Under the pieces are notes generated by a model. It ran no database searches. It saw nothing but the letters and a program-made list of their open reading frames with translations, and was not told the DNA's origin. Positions 359 through 43,355 of a stretch of 43,355 bases of DNA are shown here, in pieces. The DNA lies in the NCBI RefSeq assembly GCF_000169155.1, contig NZ_AAWL01000021.1, positions 1-43,355 of the forward strand, in the 5' to 3' direction. Each line of letters starts with the position of its first letter. Positions within the stretch are counted from its first letter, which is position 1. A program made the position numbers and the translations under genes. This DNA comes from Thermosinus carboxydivorans Nor1. Lineage in GTDB: Bacteria > Bacillota > Negativicutes > Sporomusales > Thermosinaceae.

Positions 359-410
359 GTGGTAAAAATAATAAAACCCTTCGCGTTCTTCGCGGCCTTT
401 GCGGTTAAAA

Positions 411-465
411 CCTACCCCATACCTCATACCTCATACCTCATACTTCATACCTCATACCTCATACC
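411..465. repeat. Module S: 7-bp tandem repeat (TATGAGG/TATGAAG)
   Basis: About seven units of TATGAGG or TATGAAG read on the minus strand. The same heptamer array recurs near 17.6, 20.9, 24.7, 32.5 and 33.6 kb. Here it directly adjoins a partial GCGGTT-type module B arm at about 376-406. Confidence 0.85.
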
Positions 466-513
466 AAAAAACAAAGCCCGGATCTAAATCCGGGCGCTCT
501 TTTCCGTCAGTAC

Positions 514-837: not shown

Positions 838-1100
838 CCCTTGCTTAGCCGACCTGGTCTTTGCCCCCACACCCGCCTGCTGGAAGGTTCGCTACTAGAC
901 GCTTGTGTCCCCTCACTACTACTCCTCTCGGCCGGCAACCAACTGATGACAGCACCCCGTATTATCTACCGTACCATCGGCCACACGGCCGGCAGGACTT
1001 ACATCTAAGCCGCACCATGATCAGGACGCTTTAACGCCCCTTACGTGGATCGTTTCGCCTGCGACTGGCATCGATTTTCAACCACAGACCTAAGCAAAAG
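838..1100 (-). ncRNA. Candidate structured RNA, about 260 nt (possibly raiA-motif-like)
   Basis: No credible ORF covers this stretch. On the minus strand the 5' segment TTGCTTAG (1097-1090) is perfectly complementary to CTAAGCAA (848-841), closing a domain of about 257 nt; wobble pairs extend the stem by three positions. Internal hairpins include GGCC-GTGT-GGCC. A good promoter (TTGCAT, 17 bp, TATAAT) lies just upstream and a zinc-ribbon gene follows. Known: the raiA-motif RNA of Firmicutes is of similar size and is found near raiA or comFC. This RNA sits next to fliD-fliS, a place where raiA/hpf often follows. The raiA match is inference from size and context; I could not match a consensus. 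It shows no T-box, lysine, FMN, tmRNA, SRP or RNase P signatures. Confidence 0.6.
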
Positions 1101-15354: not shown

Positions 15355-15554
15355 AACGGCTCATCTCCTAACTAATCTTTGACTTCACCTTTTATTTTAA
15401 GCTAAGCGGCGTCATTTTGGGTAGTAGTTGTTTATTCTTGCTAAGCTCAGTTGTATAATTTAATTAAAGTTAATTATTAAGACTAGGCATCCCGCTTAAA
15501 GCGGAAAACCGTGGTTAAAGTTGCTAAACCGTGGCCACAAAACGGGAGGTTAGT
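15355..15554. other. Divergent intergenic region with possible leader structure
   Basis: The 200-bp gap between yjfB-A (minus) and the repeat-protein gene (plus). It has an AT-rich centre with TATAAT at 15454-15459 (plus) but no good -35, then a hairpin CCGCT-TAA-AGCGG and two direct AACCGTGG repeats just before the ribosome site GGGAGG. It could be a regulatory leader. I could not match it to a riboswitch class; c-di-GMP and preQ1 motifs were looked for and not seen. Confidence 0.35.
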
Positions 15555-16463
15555 ATGGAAGCGTTATTAAAACAGCTGCTTGAAGGGCAAAGGCAACTCG
15601 TCGACCGTTTTAACCAGTCGGAAGCAAACATGGCAACCATGCAGCAAAACATGGTGACTTTGCAGCAAAATATGGTAACCATGCAGCAGAACATGGTGAT
15701 CTTACAGCAAAACATGGCAAATATGCAGCAAACAATAGCGACAATACAAGAAACAATAACTTTAATGCAAGCCAACATGGCCACTAAAGACGACCTGGCC
15801 CGCATGGCCACTAAAGACGATATCGCCAACATGGCCACAAAGGACGATATCGCTAACATGGCTACCAAAGATGATATCGCCAACATGGCCACCAAAGACG
15901 ATATCGCCAACATGGCCACCAAAGACGACATCGCTAACATGGCCACAAAGGACGATATCGCCAACATGGCTACCAAAGACGACCTGGCCCGCATGGCCAC
16001 TAAAGACGATATCGCTAACATGGCCACAAAGGACGATATCGCCAACATGGCTACCAAAGACGATATCGCCAACATGGCTACCAAAGATGACCTGGCCCGC
16101 ATGGCCACCAAAGATGATATCGCTAACATGGCCACTAAAGACGACATCGCGAAGCTTGATGTCAAAATCGAAAACCTTAATACCAAGGTAGAAAACCTAG
16201 ATGTCAGGGTCAATAACCTTGATGCACGGGTCGAAAAACTTGATACAAAAATCGATGCCGTCAAGGACGAACTCAAGGCAGATATCGCCCAATTAGACGC
16301 CAAAGTCGAACATTATGCCAATATCCAGCAACAAGACGTCTACCACTTGCTACGGCTGATGAACAACAAACTTGACGATTTGTACGAAAATATAAAATCG
16401 GTCGCCGAAATTACCGGCGACCACGAAATGCGTATCCGTACCCTTTCCCGCCGGCCAGTATAA
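15555..16463 (+). CDS. Tandem-repeat coiled-coil protein (14 x MATKDDIAN)
   Basis: A 302-residue hydrophilic, signal-less protein in four parts: an N-terminal helix (MEALLKQLLEGQRQLVDRF); heptad repeats of the type MQQNMVT (about 25-74); fourteen copies of a 9-residue unit MATKDDIAN or MATKDDLAR (about 75-200); and more heptads (LDVKIENLNTKVENLDVRV) leading to a non-repetitive tail. A long rod-like or trimeric coiled coil is expected. GGGAGG before the ATG at 15555 sets the start, eight codons inside the open frame. I do not know a function. Its position between motility genes hints at the cell surface or the flagellum, but nothing shows export. Confidence 0.75.
   Translation: MEALLKQLLEGQRQLVDRFNQSEANMATMQQNMVTLQQNMVTMQQNMVILQQNMANMQQTIATIQETITLMQANMATKDDLARMATKDDIANMATKDDIANMATKDDIANMATKDDIANMATKDDIANMATKDDIANMATKDDLARMATKDDIANMATKDDIANMATKDDIANMATKDDLARMATKDDIANMATKDDIAKLDVKIENLNTKVENLDVRVNNLDARVEKLDTKIDAVKDELKADIAQLDAKVEHYANIQQQDVYHLLRLMNNKLDDLYENIKSVAEITGDHEMRIRTLSRRPV
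15777..16154 (+). repeat. 27-bp coding minisatellite, 14 units
   Basis: Fourteen head-to-tail 27-bp units, all in frame, encoding MATKDD(I/L)A(N/R/K). LAR-type units occur at positions 1, 8 and 12, the rest are IAN, and the last ends in IAK. Third-position differences between units show that the array is not freshly expanded throughout. The unit keeps a second reading frame open on the opposite strand, which is an artefact of periodicity. Confidence 0.95.
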
Positions 16464-17611: not shown

Positions 17612-17659
17612 CATCTCATACCAATACTTCATACCTCATACTTCATACCTCATACCTAT
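17612..17659. repeat. Module S: 7-bp tandem repeat
   Basis: TATGAGG/TATGAAG units on the minus strand just upstream of the DUF6922 gene; they add spurious in-frame ATGs to it. Confidence 0.75.
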
Positions 17660-17763
17660 ATTATACCATAATCTAGCTGTATTAACCGGCAAAGCCACAC
17701 CAAGCGTTTCAGGCAGTTACCCCGTATTGCCGCAGTCCTCCCGTTATCTCGTCCTCCGTTGTC

Positions 17764-20821: not shown

Positions 20822-20903
20822 AACAACCCATCTCCCTTAATAATCCAGACTTATTCCTTCCCTCATGTTTAACAACGTAGCAACGCAATGCCCCACCCCC
20901 GTC

Positions 20904-20940
20904 TCACTTCATACTTCATACCTCATACTTCATACATACT
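20904..20940. repeat. Module S: 7-bp tandem repeat overlapping a gene end
   Basis: TATGAAG/TATGAGG units on the minus strand; the first units code for the last residues (MYEV) and the TGA stop of the gene at 20923-21300. Confidence 0.85.
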
Positions 20941-21300
20941 CCCACCAACCAACGCCGCCTTCCAGGCCTGATAAGCTGGCACTAGCCGGTCATTGAGCGC
21001 TGCCTGAATAGCTGGCGCCTGGCCGCTCGTGGCGATTTTGTCAAATTCATCATACGCCGCCGCGAAGGCGCGGGTCGCCTCGACTATGCGCTGGCGGTCG
21101 CTATCGGCCGTGACATAATACTCCCAGTTATCCGCCAGCGTCGCTACTGCCAGCAAAAAGTCACGAAACAACGGCCAAAAATCTTCCAGGCGCAACTCAG
21201 TCAGCTGCTTGTCCATGTGCACCAGCGCCTCGTCGACAGTGGCGATGAGTTCGAGCGCTTTTTGTGTGACTTCGCCGCGCTTTATGTCGGCATCGTGCAT
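20923..21300 (-). CDS. Hypothetical helical protein downstream of fliB
   Basis: A 125-residue, soluble, helix-rich protein without recognisable motifs (ALELIATVDEALVHMDKQLTELRLEDFWPLFRDF). It starts 13 bp after the fliB stop behind AAGGAG, so it is co-transcribed with the flagellin methylase. The size and helical bundle look resemble small flagellar chaperones or regulators, but that is a guess. Its last five codons and stop are supplied by the 7-bp repeat, so the original C-terminus may have been altered. Confidence 0.7.
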   Translation of the reverse strand: MHDADIKRGEVTQKALELIATVDEALVHMDKQLTELRLEDFWPLFRDFLLAVATLADNWEYYVTADSDRQRIVEATRAFAAAYDEFDKIATSGQAPAIQAALNDRLVPAYQAWKAALVGGSMYEV

Positions 21301-24610: not shown

Positions 24611-24699
24611 ATGAGCATTTTGGACGATAGAGCGGGATTATATAGTTTTTTTGCTGGTTTTCTTTGTTTTGCGGTTGTTTTGGGCTGGGTTTTGTTAAA

Positions 24700-24730
24700 G
24701 TATGAGGTATGAAGTATGAGGTATGAGGTA
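24700..24730. repeat. Module S: 7-bp tandem repeat (opposite orientation)
   Basis: TATGAGG/TATGAAG units here read on the plus strand, unlike the other five arrays. Confidence 0.8.
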
Positions 24731-24781
24731 GAGAGAAAGTGGAAATCGGAAAGGGGTAAGTGGTAGAACGCTTTTTGTTAA

Positions 24782-24831
24782 AACCGCAAAGATAATCATG
24801 CCAATAAATTGGCACCACAAAGCATGAAAAC
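24782..24831 (-). repeat. Module A hairpin repeat at the left edge of IS110 copy 1
   Basis: AACCGCAAAGATAATCATGC, then the hairpin CCAAT-AA-ATTGG, then CACCACAAAGCATGAAAAC. The same block occurs without an IS at 33.5, 34.3, 37.9, 38.7 and 39.6 kb. The IS begins directly after the final GAAAAC. Confidence 0.85.
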
Positions 24832-25035
24832 GGATAGTCTGCGGCGAATATTTAGCTTGCGGCTGGGCGACAAAAGGACGTTGCGCACTAGCGCTTCGAG
24901 CCTGACGCAAAGATTGTCCTCAATCATTTGGTGCATCACTAACTGTCACCTCCTGTTGGAGAGTACGCAGGGTAGAATACATCCCTAGAGATGATTGCAC
25001 CAGTCGCAAAATAAGGCCGCAGAAGGAGAATTAGA
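24832..25035 (+). ncRNA. Candidate IS110 bridge RNA region, copy 1
   Basis: 204 bp without an ORF between the IS edge and the transposase ATG. Foldable parts: GCGC-ACTA-GCGC (24883-24894; copy 2 changes one C to T, keeping a G-U pair); a closing stem TGGTGCA (24929-24935) with TGCACCA (24996-25002); inside it CTCC-TGTT-GGAG (24950-24961, loop change in copy 2) and AGGG...CCCT (24969-24986). A domain holding two inner stem-loops is the kind of layout described for bridge RNAs, which guide IS110 recombinases to donor and target DNA. The guide positions were not established. Confidence 0.55.
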
Positions 25036-26337
25036 ATGAGTAATAATGTCCAGGTCGTTTATGAACGGTGTTGCGGGTTAGACATTCACAAACGCAAAAT
25101 CGAAGCCTGTGCCCTGATAGGTGAAAAAATGCGACGCAACAGTTTCGGCACTACGTCAGAACAGCTGCATAAACTTGCCGATTGGCTTAAAAAACATGAA
25201 GTGGAAATTGTAGCAATGGAAAGCACCGGTGTCTACTGGAAACCGGTTATCAATGTTCTGGAAGCCGAAGGAATAAAAGCGATAATAGTCAATGCCCAAC
25301 ACATTAAAAATGTACCTGGACGAAAAACCGATGTTAAGGATGCCGAGTGGATAGCTTCGCTTCTTCGCCATGGACTACTAAAACCAAGCTTCATTCCCGA
25401 GCGTAGGCAACGGGAAATGCGCGAAATCACGAGGTTACGCACAGCAAAAATTCAGGAACGTGCCCGTGAAATTCAGAGGCTGCAAAAATTCTTGGAAGGC
25501 TGCAACATAAAATTATCATCAGTGGTAAGCGATATAAACGGCGTAACGGCTAAAGAAATCATCAAAGCAATTGCTGCCGGTGTAAACGACCCGAAAAAAC
25601 TGGCTGAATTATCCCGTGGCCGGTTGAGTGCTTCCCAGGAAGAACTTGAAACTGCCCTAGACGGAATAGTAAGCCCTGATATTCGCACTCTAATCCAGAT
25701 CCAACTTGAAGCTATTGAAGCCTTAGATAAACAAATAGCATCACTAGACTTAATGATGGAGCGAATAGAACAAGAAGACGAAAATTTTAAGGAAGCCCTG
25801 GAGCTAATAGATACAATCCCTGGAATAGGGAAACGGATTGCCCAAGTAATATTGGCAGAAATAGGACTTGACATGAGCCGGTTTCCAAGCGACAAACATA
25901 TAGCAGCATGGTCCGGACTAGCTCCAGGGAATAACGAAAGTGCCGGAAAGCGAAGATCTGGGAAAGCTAAACCGGGCAATCCGCAACTTAGGTCGCAACT
26001 AGTTCAGGCAGCACATACTATAGCGCGAATGAAAAACTGTTATTTATCGTCCTTATACCACCGAATAGCAGCCAGAAGGGGTAAGAAACGAGCCGCGGTC
26101 GCGGTAGCACATGCGATTATTGTAATCATATACCACATGCTGATTCGCAAGGAACCATATAAGGACCTTGGGGAAAACTATTTGTCGGAACAAATGCGCC
26201 GCAGCAAAATTAAAAATTTAGTAAACCTCGTCAAAAACATAAAGAAGTTGGACGATGATGTTCAATTCATTATTAGCGACCAAAGTATTCGGATAGTAAT
26301 TGGCGAAGAAGTTAAAGAGTTCTCAATGACAGGTTGA
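25036..26337 (+). CDS. IS110 family transposase (DEDD recombinase)
   Basis: A 433-residue RNA-guided recombinase. The RuvC-like DEDD residues are visible: Asp16 (CGLDIHK), Glu62 (MESTGVYW), Asp99 and Asp102 ([11 protein letters not shown]). The C-terminal Tnp domain has [16 protein letters not shown], a helix-hairpin-helix, and [24 protein letters not shown], which holds the catalytic serine region. Full length and apparently intact. GGAG eight bases before the ATG. The closely related copy 2 implies recent activity in this genome. Confidence 0.95.
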
Positions 26338-26469
26338 TACAATAGAAAATCAGTTTTCTTTTGTACACCAGGCCTGTCAAAAAATAGATTTGTACAGGCT
26401 TAGTTTACTATTGCCTAAAATTGGGGTATGACTAAGAAGTTGTTGCACCCCGTTTTCAGGGTAGACCCC

Positions 26470-26619
26470 CATGTCGTTAGCACGACACCAACAAAGAATG
26501 AAAACAGGTGTAGAGTTTTCGGAGTAGTGCGCGAAGTTACGCAAAGGAAAGATAAGCTAATTTCAGGCGCGACAACGTCGCGCCCGTATCCCTTTGCGTC
26601 CTTGGCGTCCTTAGCGGTT
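26470..26619 (-). repeat. Diverged module A and B to the right of IS110 copy 1
   Basis: 26470-26505 follows the module A plan (CATG, hairpin TCGT-TAGC-ACGA, then CACCAACAAAGAATGAAAAC) but with a different, still paired stem. 26531-26619 is a B-type hairpin with the inner stem GGCGCGAC-AAC-GTCGCGCC and outer arms ending in TTAGCGGTT. The 26338-26469 part is the IS right end or its flank, with no gene. Confidence 0.6.
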
Positions 26620-26641: not shown

Positions 26642-27259
26642 CTATTCCTCACCCTCGCCGTCGGCGTCCGGCTCAAGATCGGCGAAGACGGCGGCGAGGT
26701 CGATGATGCAATCGGGGAAGATGCCAACCGGGATCTGGTCGGGTTCGGCGTAAACGTCGGGCCGGCCGTAGCGGCCGCCCGCCAGCGTAAAGACCGTGAC
26801 CAGTTTGGGCTGCGGCTCGACGATCCAGTACTCCCGGACGCCAGAGCGCTCGTACAGCAGGAATTTGTCCCGCTTGTCTTTGCTGGCCGTAGCGGGTGAC
26901 ACCACTTCAACGATGAGGTCCGGCGCGCCACGTAAACCACGCGGGTCGAGTTTTTTCCGGTCGCACACCACGACAATGTCCGGCTGGACGACGGTGTCAA
27001 TGTCCTCGTCTTTCTCGCCGCCCTTCGGCAGGCGGACGTCAAAGGGAGCCACATACACTTGACAGGGCCCGCCGTTTGTTTTTATATAGTTGGCGATTTG
27101 GCGGTAGATTTCCCCGGTTACCGCCTGATGTCGCCGTGACGGCGCTGGCGTCATGCTATACGGTACGCCGTTGATCAGCTCCCACCGCTCATCGTCCGGC
27201 CAGGCAAGGTAGTCGCCATAGGTATACTTTTGGTCGGGTTTACGGGCTGGAACAGTCAT
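26642..27259 (-). CDS. Uma2 family protein, next to the DUF4276 gene
   Basis: A 205-residue Uma2 protein: KYTYGDYLAWPDDERWELINGVPYSMTPAPSRRHQ at the N-terminus, then the PD-(D/E)XK-like core PDLIVEVVSPATASKDKRDKFLLYERSGVREYWIV. It overlaps the end of the DUF4276 gene by 20 bp and has GGAGGTG before its ATG, so the three genes ATPase, DUF4276 and Uma2 read as one operon. Close paralogue of the Uma2 gene at 29197 (same N-terminal 35 residues with few changes). The acidic tail (EPDADGEGEE) is unusual. Confidence 0.85.
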   Translation of the reverse strand: MTVPARKPDQKYTYGDYLAWPDDERWELINGVPYSMTPAPSRRHQAVTGEIYRQIANYIKTNGGPCQVYVAPFDVRLPKGGEKDEDIDTVVQPDIVVVCDRKKLDPRGLRGAPDLIVEVVSPATASKDKRDKFLLYERSGVREYWIVEPQPKLVTVFTLAGGRYGRPDVYAEPDQIPVGIFPDCIIDLAAVFADLEPDADGEGEE

Positions 27260-29196: not shown

Positions 29197-29787
29197 CTAT
29201 TCTGCGGCAAATACGTCGCCCAACTGGACGGTGAGGCCACCGAGCGCCTCGATCGGCGCTTCGTCATCAGCGGTATACACGTCCGGCTTGCCGTAGCGGC
29301 CGTCTGCGCCCAGCCGATAGACAGTGACTACTTTATCGCCGGGCAGTACCAGCCAGTATTCTTTTACCCCATGGCGTTCATACAGGCTGAGCTTCTCCAC
29401 CATGTCCCGGCGAATAGTATGGGGAGACACTATTTCCACGACCAAATCCGGCGCGCCCCGCAAGCCCTTGTCGTCCAGTTTGGTCGGGTCGCACACCACC
29501 ACGATGTCCGGCTGGACGACAGTGTCGATATCCTCGTCCGCTTCCTCGCCCTTGGGCAGACGCACGTCGAAGGGAGCGGTGTATACTTTGCAGGGACCGC
29601 CGCTTTCCTTGAGAAAGTTGGCAATTTGACGGGACAGTTCGATAATCATCGCCTGGTGTCGCCGCGACGGGGCCGGCGTCATATTATACGGCACGCCGTC
29701 GATCAGCTCCCACCGCTCGTCGTCCGGCCACTTACAATAGTCGCCATAAGTATATTTCACGTTAGCTTTGCGGGGCAGACCGGTCAT
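29197..29787 (-). CDS. Uma2 family protein
   Basis: A 196-residue Uma2 protein (KYTYGDYCKWPDDERWELIDGVPYNMTPAPSRRHQ; core PDLVVEIVSPHTIRRDMVEKLSLYERHGVKEYWLV). GGAGGTGGG before the ATG. It is paralogous to the gene at 26642 and flanks the ATPase-DUF4276 pair on the other side, same strand, suggesting that the pair was inserted between, or duplicated along with, the two Uma2 genes. Stop and ATPase start are about 110 bp apart. Confidence 0.86.
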   Translation of the reverse strand: MTGLPRKANVKYTYGDYCKWPDDERWELIDGVPYNMTPAPSRRHQAMIIELSRQIANFLKESGGPCKVYTAPFDVRLPKGEEADEDIDTVVQPDIVVVCDPTKLDDKGLRGAPDLVVEIVSPHTIRRDMVEKLSLYERHGVKEYWLVLPGDKVVTVYRLGADGRYGKPDVYTADDEAPIEALGGLTVQLGDVFAAE

Positions 29788-33446: not shown

Positions 33447-33602
33447 AAAACCATGAAAGCATTGAAGTCTAACCACGGAGATATCATGCCAATAAATTGG
33501 CACCACAAAAGCATAAAAACCGTTATTAAACCGCAGAGAGCACGGAGAGTGCGATATACATCGCACTTGGGGCTTTATTTTATCTGCGCGTCCTCCGTGG
33601 TT
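33447..33602 (-). repeat. Composite repeat: modules B and A nested
   Basis: Minus-strand order: B arm AACCACGGAGGACGCGCAGA, inner stem GTGCGAT-GTAT-ATCGCAC, second arm ending CTCTGCGGTT, then module A with CCAAT-TT-ATTGG, ending CTCCGTGGTT. The inner stem differs from other copies by a paired change (GTGCGAT/ATCGCAC for GCGCGAT/ATCGCGC). The tail ACTTCAATGCTTTCATGGTT follows. Confidence 0.8.
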
Positions 33603-33632
33603 CCAATCCTCATACCTCATACCTCATACCCA
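33603..33632. repeat. Module S: 7-bp tandem repeat
   Basis: TATGAGG units on the minus strand, directly abutting the composite at 33447-33602, as at 32.5 kb. Confidence 0.8.
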
Positions 33633-33690
33633 TTATACCACATTGCAAACCCTGGCAAAAACGGCATTCGGGAAACCAGCCCAAATGCCG

Positions 33691-34295: not shown

Positions 34296-34428
34296 AACCA
34301 TAGAGATAATCATGCCAATAAATTGGCATCACAAAGCATGAAAACTATTTTTCAACCACGGAGGACACAGAGGCGCGATATACATCGCGCTAAAGTTAAA
34401 AAATATCCCCTCCGCGTCCTCCGCGGTT
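34296..34428 (-). repeat. Composite repeat: modules B and A
   Basis: Minus-strand order B (arms AACCGCGGAGGACGCGGAG and CTCTGTGTCCTCCGTGGTT, inner stem GCGCGAT-GTAT-ATCGCGC) then A (hairpin with CCAAT-TT-ATTGG), ending TCTATGGTT. It fills nearly the whole gap between the yviE-like gene and flgL. Confidence 0.85.
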
Positions 34429-37795: not shown

Positions 37796-37928
37796 AACCG
37801 CAGAGGACGCGGAGAAAAAATTTTATTTAAAAACCTTAGCGCGATGAATATCCGCCTCTGTGTCCTCCGTGGTTAAACATGGTTTTCGTGGTTTGTGATG
37901 CCAATGTATTGACACGCACATCTTGGTT
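37796..37928 (+). repeat. Composite repeat: modules B and A (plus orientation)
   Basis: AACCGCAGAGGACGCGGAG pairs with the arm ending CTGTGTCCTCCGTGGTT; then module A with a changed hairpin (CAAT-GT-ATTG) and the end TCTTGGTT. It separates yvyF from flgM. The remainder of 37758-38049 holds nothing clear. Confidence 0.8.
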
Positions 37929-38474: not shown

Positions 38475-38575
38475 AACCACAAAGTACGCAAAGAACACAA
38501 AGGGTTACGGGCGCGACATCCGTCGCGCCAAACTAAAGTCTTCGCGTTACTTCGCGTTCTTTGCGTCCTACCATG
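38475..38575. repeat. Module B variant (AACCACAAAG type)
   Basis: Arms AACCACAAAGTACGCAAAGA and TTCGCGTTCTTTGCGTCC around an inner stem GGCGCGAC-ATCC-GTCGCGCC. Same plan as B but with different arm sequence. Confidence 0.7.
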
Positions 38576-38608
38576 AAAGCCAGTAATTACAAAATAGGGA
38601 ATATAAGG

Positions 38609-38750
38609 AACCGCAGAGGACGCGGAGGAATTTAAATTATATTATATTCTTCGCGTGATGGATATCACGCGCTCTGTGTCCTCCGTGGTTAAACTTCAAT
38701 GTTTTCATATTTTGTGGTGCCAATTTATTGGCATGAATATCTTCGCGGTT
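38609..38750 (+). repeat. Composite repeat: modules B and A (plus orientation)
   Basis: Arm AACCGCAGAGGACGCGGAG pairs with CTCTGTGTCCTCCGTGGTT at 18 of 19 positions (three G-U). Inner stem GCGTGAT-GG-ATATCACGC. Then TTAAACTTCAATGTTTTCAT and module A (CCAAT-TT-ATTGG), ending CTTCGCGGTT. The remaining 38751-38917 holds only TCCTTGCAGGA at 38847 and an AAAGG ribosome site. Confidence 0.85.
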
Positions 38751-39528: not shown

Positions 39529-39669
39529 AACCACAGCGGACGCGGAGGAATTTGATTTATATATATTCTACGCGTGATGGATATCACGCGCTCTGTGTCC
39601 TCCGTGGTTAGACTTCAATGTTTTCATTGTTTGTGGTGCCAATTTATTGGCATGATTATCTTTGTGGTT
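39529..39669 (+). repeat. Composite repeat: modules B and A (plus orientation)
   Basis: Runs from 8 bp after the HD-GYP stop to 17 bp before the comFC stop. Arms AACCACAGCGGACGCGGAG and CTCTGTGTCCTCCGTGGTT (17 of 19 paired, two G-U), inner stem GCGTGAT-GG-ATATCACGC, then module A, ending CTTTGTGGTT. Near-identical in plan to 38609-38750, so the HD-GYP gene stands between two like-oriented copies. Confidence 0.88.
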
Positions 39670-42585: not shown

Positions 42586-42634
42586 AACCGCAAAGATATT
42601 CATGCCAATAATTGGCACCACAAAGCATGAAAAC
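42586..42634 (-). repeat. Module A hairpin repeat at the left edge of IS110 copy 2
   Basis: Same block as 24782-24831 with two differences (ATATTC for ATAATC and one A fewer in the hairpin loop). IS110 copy 2 begins right after the final GAAAAC. Confidence 0.85.
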
Positions 42635-42838
42635 GGATAGTCTGCGGCGAATATTTAGCTTGCGGCTGGGCGACCAAAGGACGTCGCGTACTAGCGCTTC
42701 GAGCCTGACGCAAAGATTGTCCTCAATCATTCGGTGCATCACTAACTGTCACCTCCTATTGGAGAGTACGCAGGGTAGAATACATCCCTAGAGATGATTG
42801 CACCAGTCGCAAAATAAGGCCGCAGAAGGAGAATTAGA
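42635..42838 (+). ncRNA. Candidate IS110 bridge RNA region, copy 2
   Basis: Homologue of 24832-25035. Differences fall where pairing is kept (GCGT-ACTA-GCGC) or in a loop (CTCC-TATT-GGAG); one change weakens the outermost pair of the closing stem. Confidence 0.55.
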
Positions 42839-43355
42839 ATGAGTAACAATGTCCAGGTAGTTTATGAGCGGTGTTGCGGGTTAGACATTCACAAACGCAA
42901 AATTGAAGCCTGTGCCCTGGTAGGCGAAAAAATGCGGCGCAACAGTTTCGGCACTACGTCAGAACAGTTGCACAAACTTGCCGATTGGTTAAAAAAACAT
43001 GAGGTTGAAATCGTAGCAATGGAAAGCACCGGTGTTTACTGGAAGCCGGTTATCAACGTTCTGGAAGCCGAAGGAATAAAAGCGATAATAGTCAATGCTC
43101 AGCACATTAAAAACGTACCTGGACGAAAAACCGATGTTAAAGATGCCGAGTGGATAGCTTCGCTTCTTCGCCATGGACTACTAAAACCAAGCTTCATTCC
43201 CGAGCGCAGGCAACGGGAAATGCGGGAAATCACAAGATTACGCACCTCTAAAATTCAAGAACGCGCCCGTGAAATCCAACGGCTGCAAAAATTCTTGGAA
43301 GGCTGCAACATAAAATTGTCATCAGTGGTAAGCGATATAAACGGCGAACGGCGAA
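42839..43355 (+). CDS. IS110 family transposase, 5' part
   Basis: The first 172 codons match copy 1 with two substitutions (Val for Ile28, Ser for Ala137), including Asp16, Glu62, Asp99 and Asp102. In the last 15 bases it departs: one T is missing relative to copy 1 (GGCGAACGG against GGCGTAACGG), which would shift the frame. As this is the very edge of the sequence, an assembly or read error is as likely as a real mutation. Confidence 0.88.

What the first reader, a model, noticed from the sequence alone, without database searches (positions are those of the whole stretch)
24832..25035. IS110 copies begin at the same base of module A: repeat-targeting, probably RNA-guided
Two IS110 copies 17.8 kb apart both start directly after CACCACAAAGCATGAAAAC of module A, a block that also occurs without an IS at five other places. 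IS110 recombinases use a bridge RNA encoded in the long non-coding end; IS621 likewise targets a REP repeat in E. coli. Here the 204-bp left end folds into a domain with two inner stem-loops, and differences between the copies mostly keep the pairing. It shares the 9-mer CGCAAAGAT (24906-24914) with the start of module A, a possible guide or chance. A programmable recombinase matched to a structured repeat would be a new target type.
Basis: partly seen in the sequence, partly recalled or inferred. Interest (0 to 1): 0.75.

Follow-up and report, generated by a model that had tools for sequence, protein, structure and literature searches.

The report
RNA-guided jumping gene with miniature copies

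Summary
The two IS110 copies and their common left neighbour "module A" are real, but the boundary is wrong. Module A is the IS110's own left terminus. In a same-genus genome the site of window copy 2 is uninterrupted at AACCGCAAAG^, and a gene-less module-A element (173 bp, window 38568-38740) has a base-exact empty site (AACCGCGAAG^GACGCAAAG, core AG). Of 76 related IS110s, 67 show the same left-end pattern (0 in shuffles). The target is the arm of a palindromic repeat, AACCRCNNAG^NRCRC. Each tracks the flanks or ends of its own element in relatives (permutations 0/5000 and 0/10000; donor guide 56/75 exact against 1/75 in shuffles). Two points look new: (1) elements of 63-246 bp with only the IS ends, 25 of 28 module-A ones with a target half-site inside, and a second IS110 whose guide and 14 of 20 insertions hit the first one's right end; (2) target guides in the order reported for IS1111, although the RNA is upstream as in IS110. 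Repeat targeting itself is known. Mobilisation in trans is inferred.

The parts
24782..24791 (+). Left half of the target (AACCGCAAAG), arm of a palindromic repeat; core AG at 24790-24791
   Evidence: 5/5 left ends of this IS found in the genome follow AACCRCARAG; uninterrupted in G001 at the site of copy 2
24792..26464 (+). IS110 family I, copy 1 (1,673 bp), left end ATAATCATGCC, right end TTTTCAGGGTAG
   Evidence: Left end by the G001 comparison and relatives; right end in 4/4 right ends found in the genome and by donor-guide match in relatives; letters checked
24792..24831 (+). Module A = left-terminal hairpin of the IS, ending TGAAAAC (inverted match of GTTTTCA in the right end)
   Evidence: 56 copies in own genome, 0 for the reversed control; left-end pattern in 67 of 76 relatives, 0 in 20 rounds of shuffles
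24855..25010 (+). Predicted bridge RNA (transcript ends not determined)
   Evidence: Consensus fold of 31 sequences, 19 of 28 pairs with two-sided changes; z -2.93; no Rfam match
24883..24889 (+). Right target guide GCGCACT = reverse complement of AGTGCGC (right flank 26526-26532)
   Evidence: relatives
24904..24912 (+).
   Evidence: relatives
24968..24975 (+). Left donor guide CAGGGTAG, identical to the right end 26457-26464
   Evidence: relatives
25036..26337 (+). IS110 transposase, 433 aa
   Evidence: PF01548 and PF02371 above cut-off; NF033542 285.6 bits, cut-off 140; IS621 and ISCro4 chains
26465..26527 (+). 63-bp mini-element with family II ends (ACCCCCATGTCG...GTTTTCGGAGTAG), at the right end of the IS
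   Evidence: 11 such copies of 63-64 bp in the genome; letters checked
26528..26619 (+). Right part of the interrupted palindromic target repeat (ends ...CTTAGCGGTT)
42586..42595 (+). Left half of the target (AACCGCAAAG) of IS copy 2
   Evidence: G001 has AACCGCAAAG^AACACAAAGAACGC uninterrupted
42596..43355 (+). IS110 family I, copy 2, cut by the contig end
38568..38740 (-). 173-bp non-autonomous element with both IS-type ends
   Evidence: Base-exact empty site in G001
33481..33519 (+). Module-A left end, no right end recognised
34306..34345 (+). Module-A left end, no right end recognised
37882..37921 (-). Degenerate module-A left end
39620..39659 (-). Module-A left end; G001 has a different module-A element with both ends at the orthologous place

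Best explanation
This is an RNA-guided IS110 element whose left terminus is module A. It recombines as a circle at a core AG into the arm of a palindromic repeat, AACCRCNNAG^NRCRC, chosen by its upstream bridge RNA: the left target guide GACGCAAAG pairs with the left half-site, the right target guide GCGYACU with the right half-site, and the donor guide CAGGGUAG with the right end of the IS. The many copies of module A without a gene are non-autonomous relatives (or remnants of them) that keep the IS ends. They are most probably moved in trans by the same recombinase and RNA, and most of those with both ends carry a target half-site inside. A second IS110 (family II, 53% identical) has a guide matched to family I's right end and inserts there, also as 63-bp mini-elements. 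Shown by sequence: boundaries, empty sites, guide matches and their covariation. Inferred: transcription of the RNA, the circle, mobilisation in trans.
For: Empty sites: 173-bp element absent base-exactly in G001, and copy 2's target uninterrupted in G001. 5/5 left ends after AACCRCARAG. Right flanks continue the repeat in the three right ends without the mini-element and in the G001 copy. Module A-type left end in relatives: 67 of 76 with a strict pattern, 72 with a loose one; shuffles mean 0 and 0.5 of 76. Left guide against flank: 38 unique pairs, mean 4.5 of 6 against 2.05 for other elements' flanks; 33 distinct guides, 0 of 5000 permutations reach it. Left donor guide: 56 of 75 exact at the right end, 1 of 75 in shuffles. 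Right guide: 26 distinct guides, 2.69 of 4 against 1.31, 0 of 10000. In the 3 full copies the right guide's variable base matches the flank (C with G in L001 and L191, U with A in L002). Structure: 19 of 28 pairs with two-sided changes; 80 G.U against 8 A.C cells supports this strand. Short elements with both ends: 28 in G000, 16 in G001. Family II: guide AAGGGTAG, 14 of 20 insertions at family I right ends (13 printed, plus L292, whose context repeats a printed one).
Against: No RNA, protein or transposition data. Only one exact two-sided empty site was found, and for a short element; for the IS itself only the left side was seen in an orthologous place, because copy 2 runs off the contig. 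At copy 1 G001 lacks the palindrome and IS together, so it is no clean empty site. Other occupied places compared with G001 (33481, 34306 and 39620; L002; sites a-e) gave no clean empty site. The right donor guide was not resolved. The left guide misses the first two of its nine bases (GA against AC), and the target's AACC is more conserved than the guide explains. The base just after the core often mismatches the right guide. The parsing rules for the guide and left-end tests were written after looking at the sequences. 42 of 70 non-IS module-A contexts counted in G000 have no recognised right end within 260 bp and may be old remnants. For family II the right target guide does not match its right flanks well.
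Confidence: 0.86

Rival explanations
1. One reading: module A is the target repeat and the IS inserts right after its last base (left end 24832).
For: The 5 left ends found in the genome follow module A, and module A also occurs without an IS.
Against: Right flanks of the IS do not continue a module-A element. G001 has the site of copy 2 without module A, and lacks a module-A element with the break at AACCGCGAAG^. 67 of 76 relatives of the IS, from other genera, show the same left-end pattern.
Confidence: 0.03
2. Module A and the IS spread together by duplication or homologous recombination between repeats rather than by transposition.
For: The flanking palindromes are themselves repeats, and orthologous places often hold different repeats in the two genomes.
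Against: DNA just outside AACC differs at each of the five IS places; the 173-bp element is precisely absent in G001; guide and flank covary across genera.
Confidence: 0.05
3. The short elements are dead or moved by something else; the IS110 only shares ends with them because it once captured them.
For: 42 of 70 copies counted lack a recognised right end; no movement was observed.
Against: Several size classes share the ends (88-246 bp in G000, 13 of 16 of 131-134 bp in G001); 21 of 28 and 15 of 16 end exactly in the donor-guide sequence CAGGGTAG; insertion is at the IS's own target and core; an engineered ISEc21 mini-IS with 29-bp and 16-bp ends moves with recombinase and RNA supplied from outside it (PMC11187229, section 12).
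Confidence: 0.15

Closest known systems
IS621 (IS110 group) and its bridge RNA, E. coli
   Same: Recombinase of the same family, upstream RNA, short core, insertion into structured repeats (REP), guides for both half-sites and the donor (PMC11208160: abstract, sections 6 and 12, passages read)
   Different: In IS621 the 5' side of the target loop pairs with the bottom strand and the 3' side with the top strand; here the order is reversed, the core is AG, the transposase is about 100 aa longer (433 against a 328-residue chain), and the fold leaves the donor guide unpaired in a multiloop
IS1111 group and its seekRNAs (ISEc11, ISKpn4, ISPa11)
   Same: Top-strand match 5' of the bottom-strand match; subterminal inverted repeat (here 7 bp, TGAAAAC/GTTTTCA); donor guide in a multiloop in many members (PMC11187229 abstract and sections 6, 9, 12, 13; PMC11208160 section 12)
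   Different: Here the RNA is upstream of the gene and the transposase is long (433 and 410 aa), not 330-350 aa
IS1111 in QMITE2 of Coxiella burnetii
   Same: An IS110-superfamily element that inserts into a repeat carried by short elements (PMC5896051: abstract and passages)
   Different: Nothing in the passages read says that QMITE2 carries IS1111 ends; here the short elements carry the ends of the IS itself
IS4321/IS5075 in Tn21 terminal repeats
   Same: An IS1111 element that targets the end of another transposon (title seen in the reference list of PMC11208160; details recalled)
   Different: Here the targeted end belongs to another IS110, and the target guide of one resembles the donor guide of the other (7 of 8 bases, AAGGGTAG and CAGGGTAG)
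MITEs of other IS families (MITECca01 of IS982; MITEPye1 linked to IS1182)
   Same: Short elements with the ends of a resident IS (PMC9769881, PMC11578231: passages)
   Different: Different transposase families; no guide RNA is mentioned in the passages read

Membership tests
IS110 family | DEDD/RuvC domain PF01548 and C-terminal PF02371 | tested here: met
   Both above cut-off in families I and II (family II given as a 399-residue part of its 410-aa ORF); NF033542 above cut-off. C-terminal motif is [10 protein letters not shown] / GMAPGHNESA, with SA where SG is described
IS110 family | Upstream structured non-coding RNA with two guide-bearing domains | tested here: met
   Consensus fold of 31 sequences; z -2.93. 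Expression not tested
IS110 family | Target guides complementary to both half-sites | tested here: met
   Left: 0 of 5000 permutations. Right: 0 of 10000. Family II's right guide does not fit its flanks well
IS110 family | Left donor guide matches the right end of the element | tested here: met
   56 of 75 exact; families I and II in this genome
IS110 family | Right donor guide matches the left end | tested here: inconclusive
   GGGU..CU against AG^ACCC in family II by eye; unclear in family I; no statistical test made
IS110 family | Insertion at a short core without other target duplication | tested here: met
   AG at both ends of the 173-bp element, with exact empty site; AG at both ends of the IS
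IS110 family | Circular intermediate | not testable with these tools
   Needs PCR or reads
IS110 group, IS621/ISEc21 type | Bottom-strand match 5' of top-strand match | tested here: not met
   Top-strand match (right guide) is 5' (structure)
IS1111 group | RNA downstream of tnp | tested here: not met
   RNA lies upstream
IS1111 group | Top-strand match 5' of bottom-strand match | tested here: met
IS1111 group | Subterminal inverted repeats of 7-17 bp | tested here: inconclusive
   TGAAAAC (24825-24831) and GTTTTCA (26452-26458), 7 bp, seen directly; significance not tested
IS1111 group | Transposase of 330-350 aa | tested here: not met
   433 and 410 aa
MITE-like non-autonomous element | Short, no transposase gene, ends shared with a resident IS, many copies, insertion shown by empty site | tested here: met
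   (one exact empty site)
MITE-like non-autonomous element | Moved in trans by the resident transposase | not testable with these tools
   Needs an assay

The most novel reading that the evidence does not exclude
A self-feeding, layered RNA-guided mobile system: family I IS110 and dozens of natural mini-IS110s (63-246 bp) are moved by guide RNAs in trans; most minis with module-A ends carry fresh target half-sites, so each insertion makes new landing sites; and family II has a target guide matched to the donor end of family I, so one IS110 rides on another's end. The subgroup also combines an upstream RNA and a long transposase with the target-guide order of IS1111, a geometry between the two known groups.
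Probability: 0.6. Interest if true: 0.75.

Novelty: new variant of a known kind. Interest (0 to 1): 0.62.

Why it matters
If the short elements are moved in trans, they are natural minimal substrates for bridge-RNA recombinases, down to 63 bp with about 40 bp of left end and about 13 bp of right end, with dozens of genomic insertions to read the rules from. The set suggests how reprogramming happens in nature: a single guide base changed together with the flank, and one IS110's guide aimed at another's end. If the guide order holds, the clean split between IS110 and IS1111 geometry no longer stands. It also offers an origin for some interspersed bacterial repeats that look like plain repeats.

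Tried and rejected
Module A as target: rejected by the G001 comparison and relatives. Rfam: one family in the window at gathering scores (raiA) and none for 24700-25100 at E up to 1. First boundary idea (core inside AAAAC^GGATAG) failed because left and right flanks shared no core; AG at AACCRCARAG^ did. Empty sites for the 63-bp mini-element: the orthologs of the places looked at in G001 carry other repeats or none, so only paralogous evidence is left (module-A elements with and without it). L191 place: G001 has the IS and G000 a module-A element near the same base, but the flanks differ by an extra stretch, so it is not counted as the same site. Right donor guide: no rule found by eye that fits families I and II and the relatives. 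IS110-derived MITEs in print: searches IS110+MITE (20 hits), IS110+MITEs (24), IS110+non-autonomous (12), IS1111+MITE (12), IS110+miniature+bridge RNA (6); listings read, four papers opened for passages; none of the passages described an IS110-derived MITE. The other papers in the listings were not opened, and this library lacks most subscription papers, so it is not proof of absence. The search IS110+bridge recombinase gave 0. Six other published bridge RNAs (ISPpu10, ISAar29, ISHne5, ISCARN28, ISAzs32, ISPa11) are drawn in a figure that is not held, so I cannot say that the guide order was never seen before.

Rows dropped: of 80 relatives kept (503 encode a relative; the best 80 are held), L139, L143, L179 and L181 were left out before the tests; 76 were taken up. 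Left-guide test: 76 relatives plus 5 own-genus copies; 67 parsed, 14 not (10 relatives, the 3 family-I copies and 1 family-II copy; the parser missed the left end, its AG or the guide), and the family-I guides were read by eye. Donor-guide test: 75 of 76. Right-guide test: 59 of those 75 (donor match of at least 7 of 8 and a parsed loop). Fold: 31 of the 32 non-redundant sequences (L127 left out). Left-end pattern: 72 of 76 loosely, 67 strictly; the four loose misses are L111 and L131 (pattern variants by eye), L158 (cut by the contig) and L187 (damaged hairpin). Module-A census: pattern hits 56 in G000 and 38 in G001; the script counts 75 and 33 distinct contexts because it allows one insertion or deletion and sees only fetched stretches. 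Family II census: module A looked for with up to 6 edits within about 280 bp upstream.

Full report
What was claimed. Two IS110 copies start after the same base of "module A", a block that also occurs alone, so module A would be an RNA-guided target.

Observation. Both copies and the common neighbour are there, and module A occurs five more times in the window. In the whole genome (2.89 Mb, 49 contigs) the transposase search gives 29 matches: 7 places of this IS at 96-100% identity (2 full, 5 cut by contig ends), a second IS110 at about 53% ("family II", 2 full matches and many pieces, mostly at contig ends), and 4 weak matches. Module A occurs 56 times (at most 3 mismatches; the reversed pattern 0 times) and 38 times in the only other genome held for the genus, G001, which has one copy of this IS; its other matches are at most 31% identical.

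Boundary. The 5 left ends found read AACCRCARAG-ATAWTCATGCC...CATGAAAAC-GGATAG. Right ends read TTTTCAGGGTAG followed by KACGC... of a repeat in L002, L005 and L006; in the window copy a 63-bp piece comes between. The deciding comparison is with G001. At window 38568-38740 (minus strand) the window has AACCGCGAAG, then 173 bp that begin with module A and end in TTTCATGGTAG, then GACGCAAAGAACGCG; G001 has AACCGCGAAGGACGCAAAGAACGCG (window letters rechecked). At copy 2 the window has AACCGCAAAG, then module A and the IS; G001 has AACCGCAAAGAACACAAAGAACGC and the rest of a palindrome. So the mobile unit begins with module A, and the target is the palindrome arm. At copy 1 G001 lacks palindrome and IS together, which decides nothing. 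Nine other places compared (three in the window, L002, five) gave no clean empty site. Of 76 relatives taken up (nearly all Bacillota by their titles), 67 have AG, 3-7 bases, YATG, a short stretch, CAC and ATGAAAA in this order upstream of the gene, and 72 with a looser last motif; shuffled sequences gave a mean of 0 and 0.5 of 76 in 20 rounds.

Guides. In the region upstream of the gene, family I has GCGYACU, a hairpin, then GACGCAAAG, and further on CAGGGUAG; family II has AAGGGUAG and CGGAGUAG at the last two places. These equal or nearly equal the left flank (ACCGCAAAG and variants for I, CAGGGTAG and similar for II) and the right end (CAGGGTAG, CGGAGTAG) of their own element. Tests in relatives: left guide against left flank, 38 unique pairs, 26 with at least 5 of 6 matches (3.5% in mismatched pairs), 0 of 5000 permutations over 33 distinct guides; donor guide against right end, 56 of 75 exact, 7 of 75 with one mismatch, 12 worse, against 1 and 6 of 75 in shuffled ends; right guide against right flank, 37 of 52 pairs with at least 3 of 4 (16.5% in mismatched pairs), 0 of 10000 permutations over 26 distinct guides. 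Within this genus the three full copies differ at one guide base in step with the flank: GCGCACT with AGTGCGC in the window copy (beyond the 63-bp piece) and with AGGGCGC in G001, GCGTACT with AGGACGC in L002. The base just after the core mismatches in two of these three.

Structure and order. A consensus fold of 31 sequences has the right guide on the 5' side and the left guide on the 3' side of the target hairpin, and the donor guide unpaired in a multiloop; 19 of 28 pairs show two-sided changes. Wobble counts (80 G.U, 8 A.C) support the + strand. The order top-strand match then bottom-strand match is what PMC11187229 (sections 9 and 12) reports for IS1111, and the opposite of ISEc21 there and of IS621 (PMC11208160 section 6). 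Yet this RNA is upstream, and the transposases (433 aa; family II 410 aa) fall in the length range that section 6 of PMC11187229 gives for the IS110 subgroup (395-455 aa). The order does not depend on which strand is transcribed, because reverse complementing keeps it (inference).

Short elements. In the fetched stretches 28 module-A elements of G000 and 16 of G001 without the gene have both ends within 260 bp (88-246 and 74-134 bp); 42 of 70 non-IS contexts in G000 have no recognised right end. 21 of 28 and 15 of 16 end exactly in CAGGGTAG. 25 of 28 and 14 of 16 contain a target half-site AAYCRCNNAG inside, against 7% of random 170-bp stretches of the window. Left flanks match the left guide at 3.8 of 7 bases against 1.9 at AG sites of the window. 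The window holds 14 target-like arms where 0.06 are expected. Both arms of one palindrome can be occupied, in opposite orientation (L002).

Family II on family I. Pattern hits for its left end: 21 in G000, 1 in G001. One of the 21 (L298) and the G001 hit are relics in another context; of the other 20, 9 are IS left ends and 11 are 63-64-bp mini-elements (L292 repeats a context and L291 lies in L290). 14 of 20 sit at the right end of a family I element (13 short ones, and the IS of the window), 2 at a family II right end, 4 elsewhere. No family II gene appeared in G001. So the 63-bp piece at 26465-26527 is most simply an insertion into the IS's right end.

What is known. IS621 in REP and IS1111 in QMITE2 already show structured repeats as targets (PMC11208160, PMC5896051). 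A mini-IS with 29- and 16-bp ends moves in the laboratory with recombinase and RNA supplied from outside it (PMC11187229 section 12). I found no printed IS110-derived MITE in the searches named under Tried and rejected. What looks new is the natural mini-IS110s with target half-sites inside, the second IS110 aimed at the first one's end, and the mixed guide geometry.

Verdict. The finding is real and RNA guidance is well supported by sequence, but the key inference (module A as target) is wrong. All mobility is inferred from sequence.

Noticed in passing
L002 (G000:C1:222276-224271): One palindromic repeat has both arms occupied: a module-A element plus 63-bp mini-element in the left arm and the full IS110 in the right arm, in opposite orientation.
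   Followed up: partly
L299/L309/L310, L300/L311: At orthologous intergenic places the two genomes of the genus often carry different palindromic repeats, as if the palindromes themselves turn over quickly; what moves them is unknown.
   Followed up: no
window 407-467, 17619-17665, 20892-20952, 24698-24731, 33607-33653: Short tandem runs of ATACCTC/GAGGTAT recur in the window, some next to these repeats.
   Followed up: no
window 15531-16463: ORF with about 14 copies of a 27-nt unit (ATKDDIANM-like peptide repeats).
   Followed up: no
window 840-1098 (-): raiA RNA (RF03072), 191.5 bits.
   Followed up: no
window 26642-27259 and 29197-29787 (-): Two related ORFs (repeat family D4, 69% identical over 300 nt) near the IS.
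   Followed up: no
L123: In Aneurinibacillus tyrosinisolvens an IS110 right end is followed directly by what looks like another IS110-type left end (ACCTCCATGCCGCC), so insertion at an IS110 end may not be confined to this genus.
   Followed up: no
L298 and L278 (G001): Degenerate relatives of the family II left end in another context (followed by TATTATTTAACCTCATACC) are shared by both genomes, perhaps remnants of an older element.
   Followed up: no
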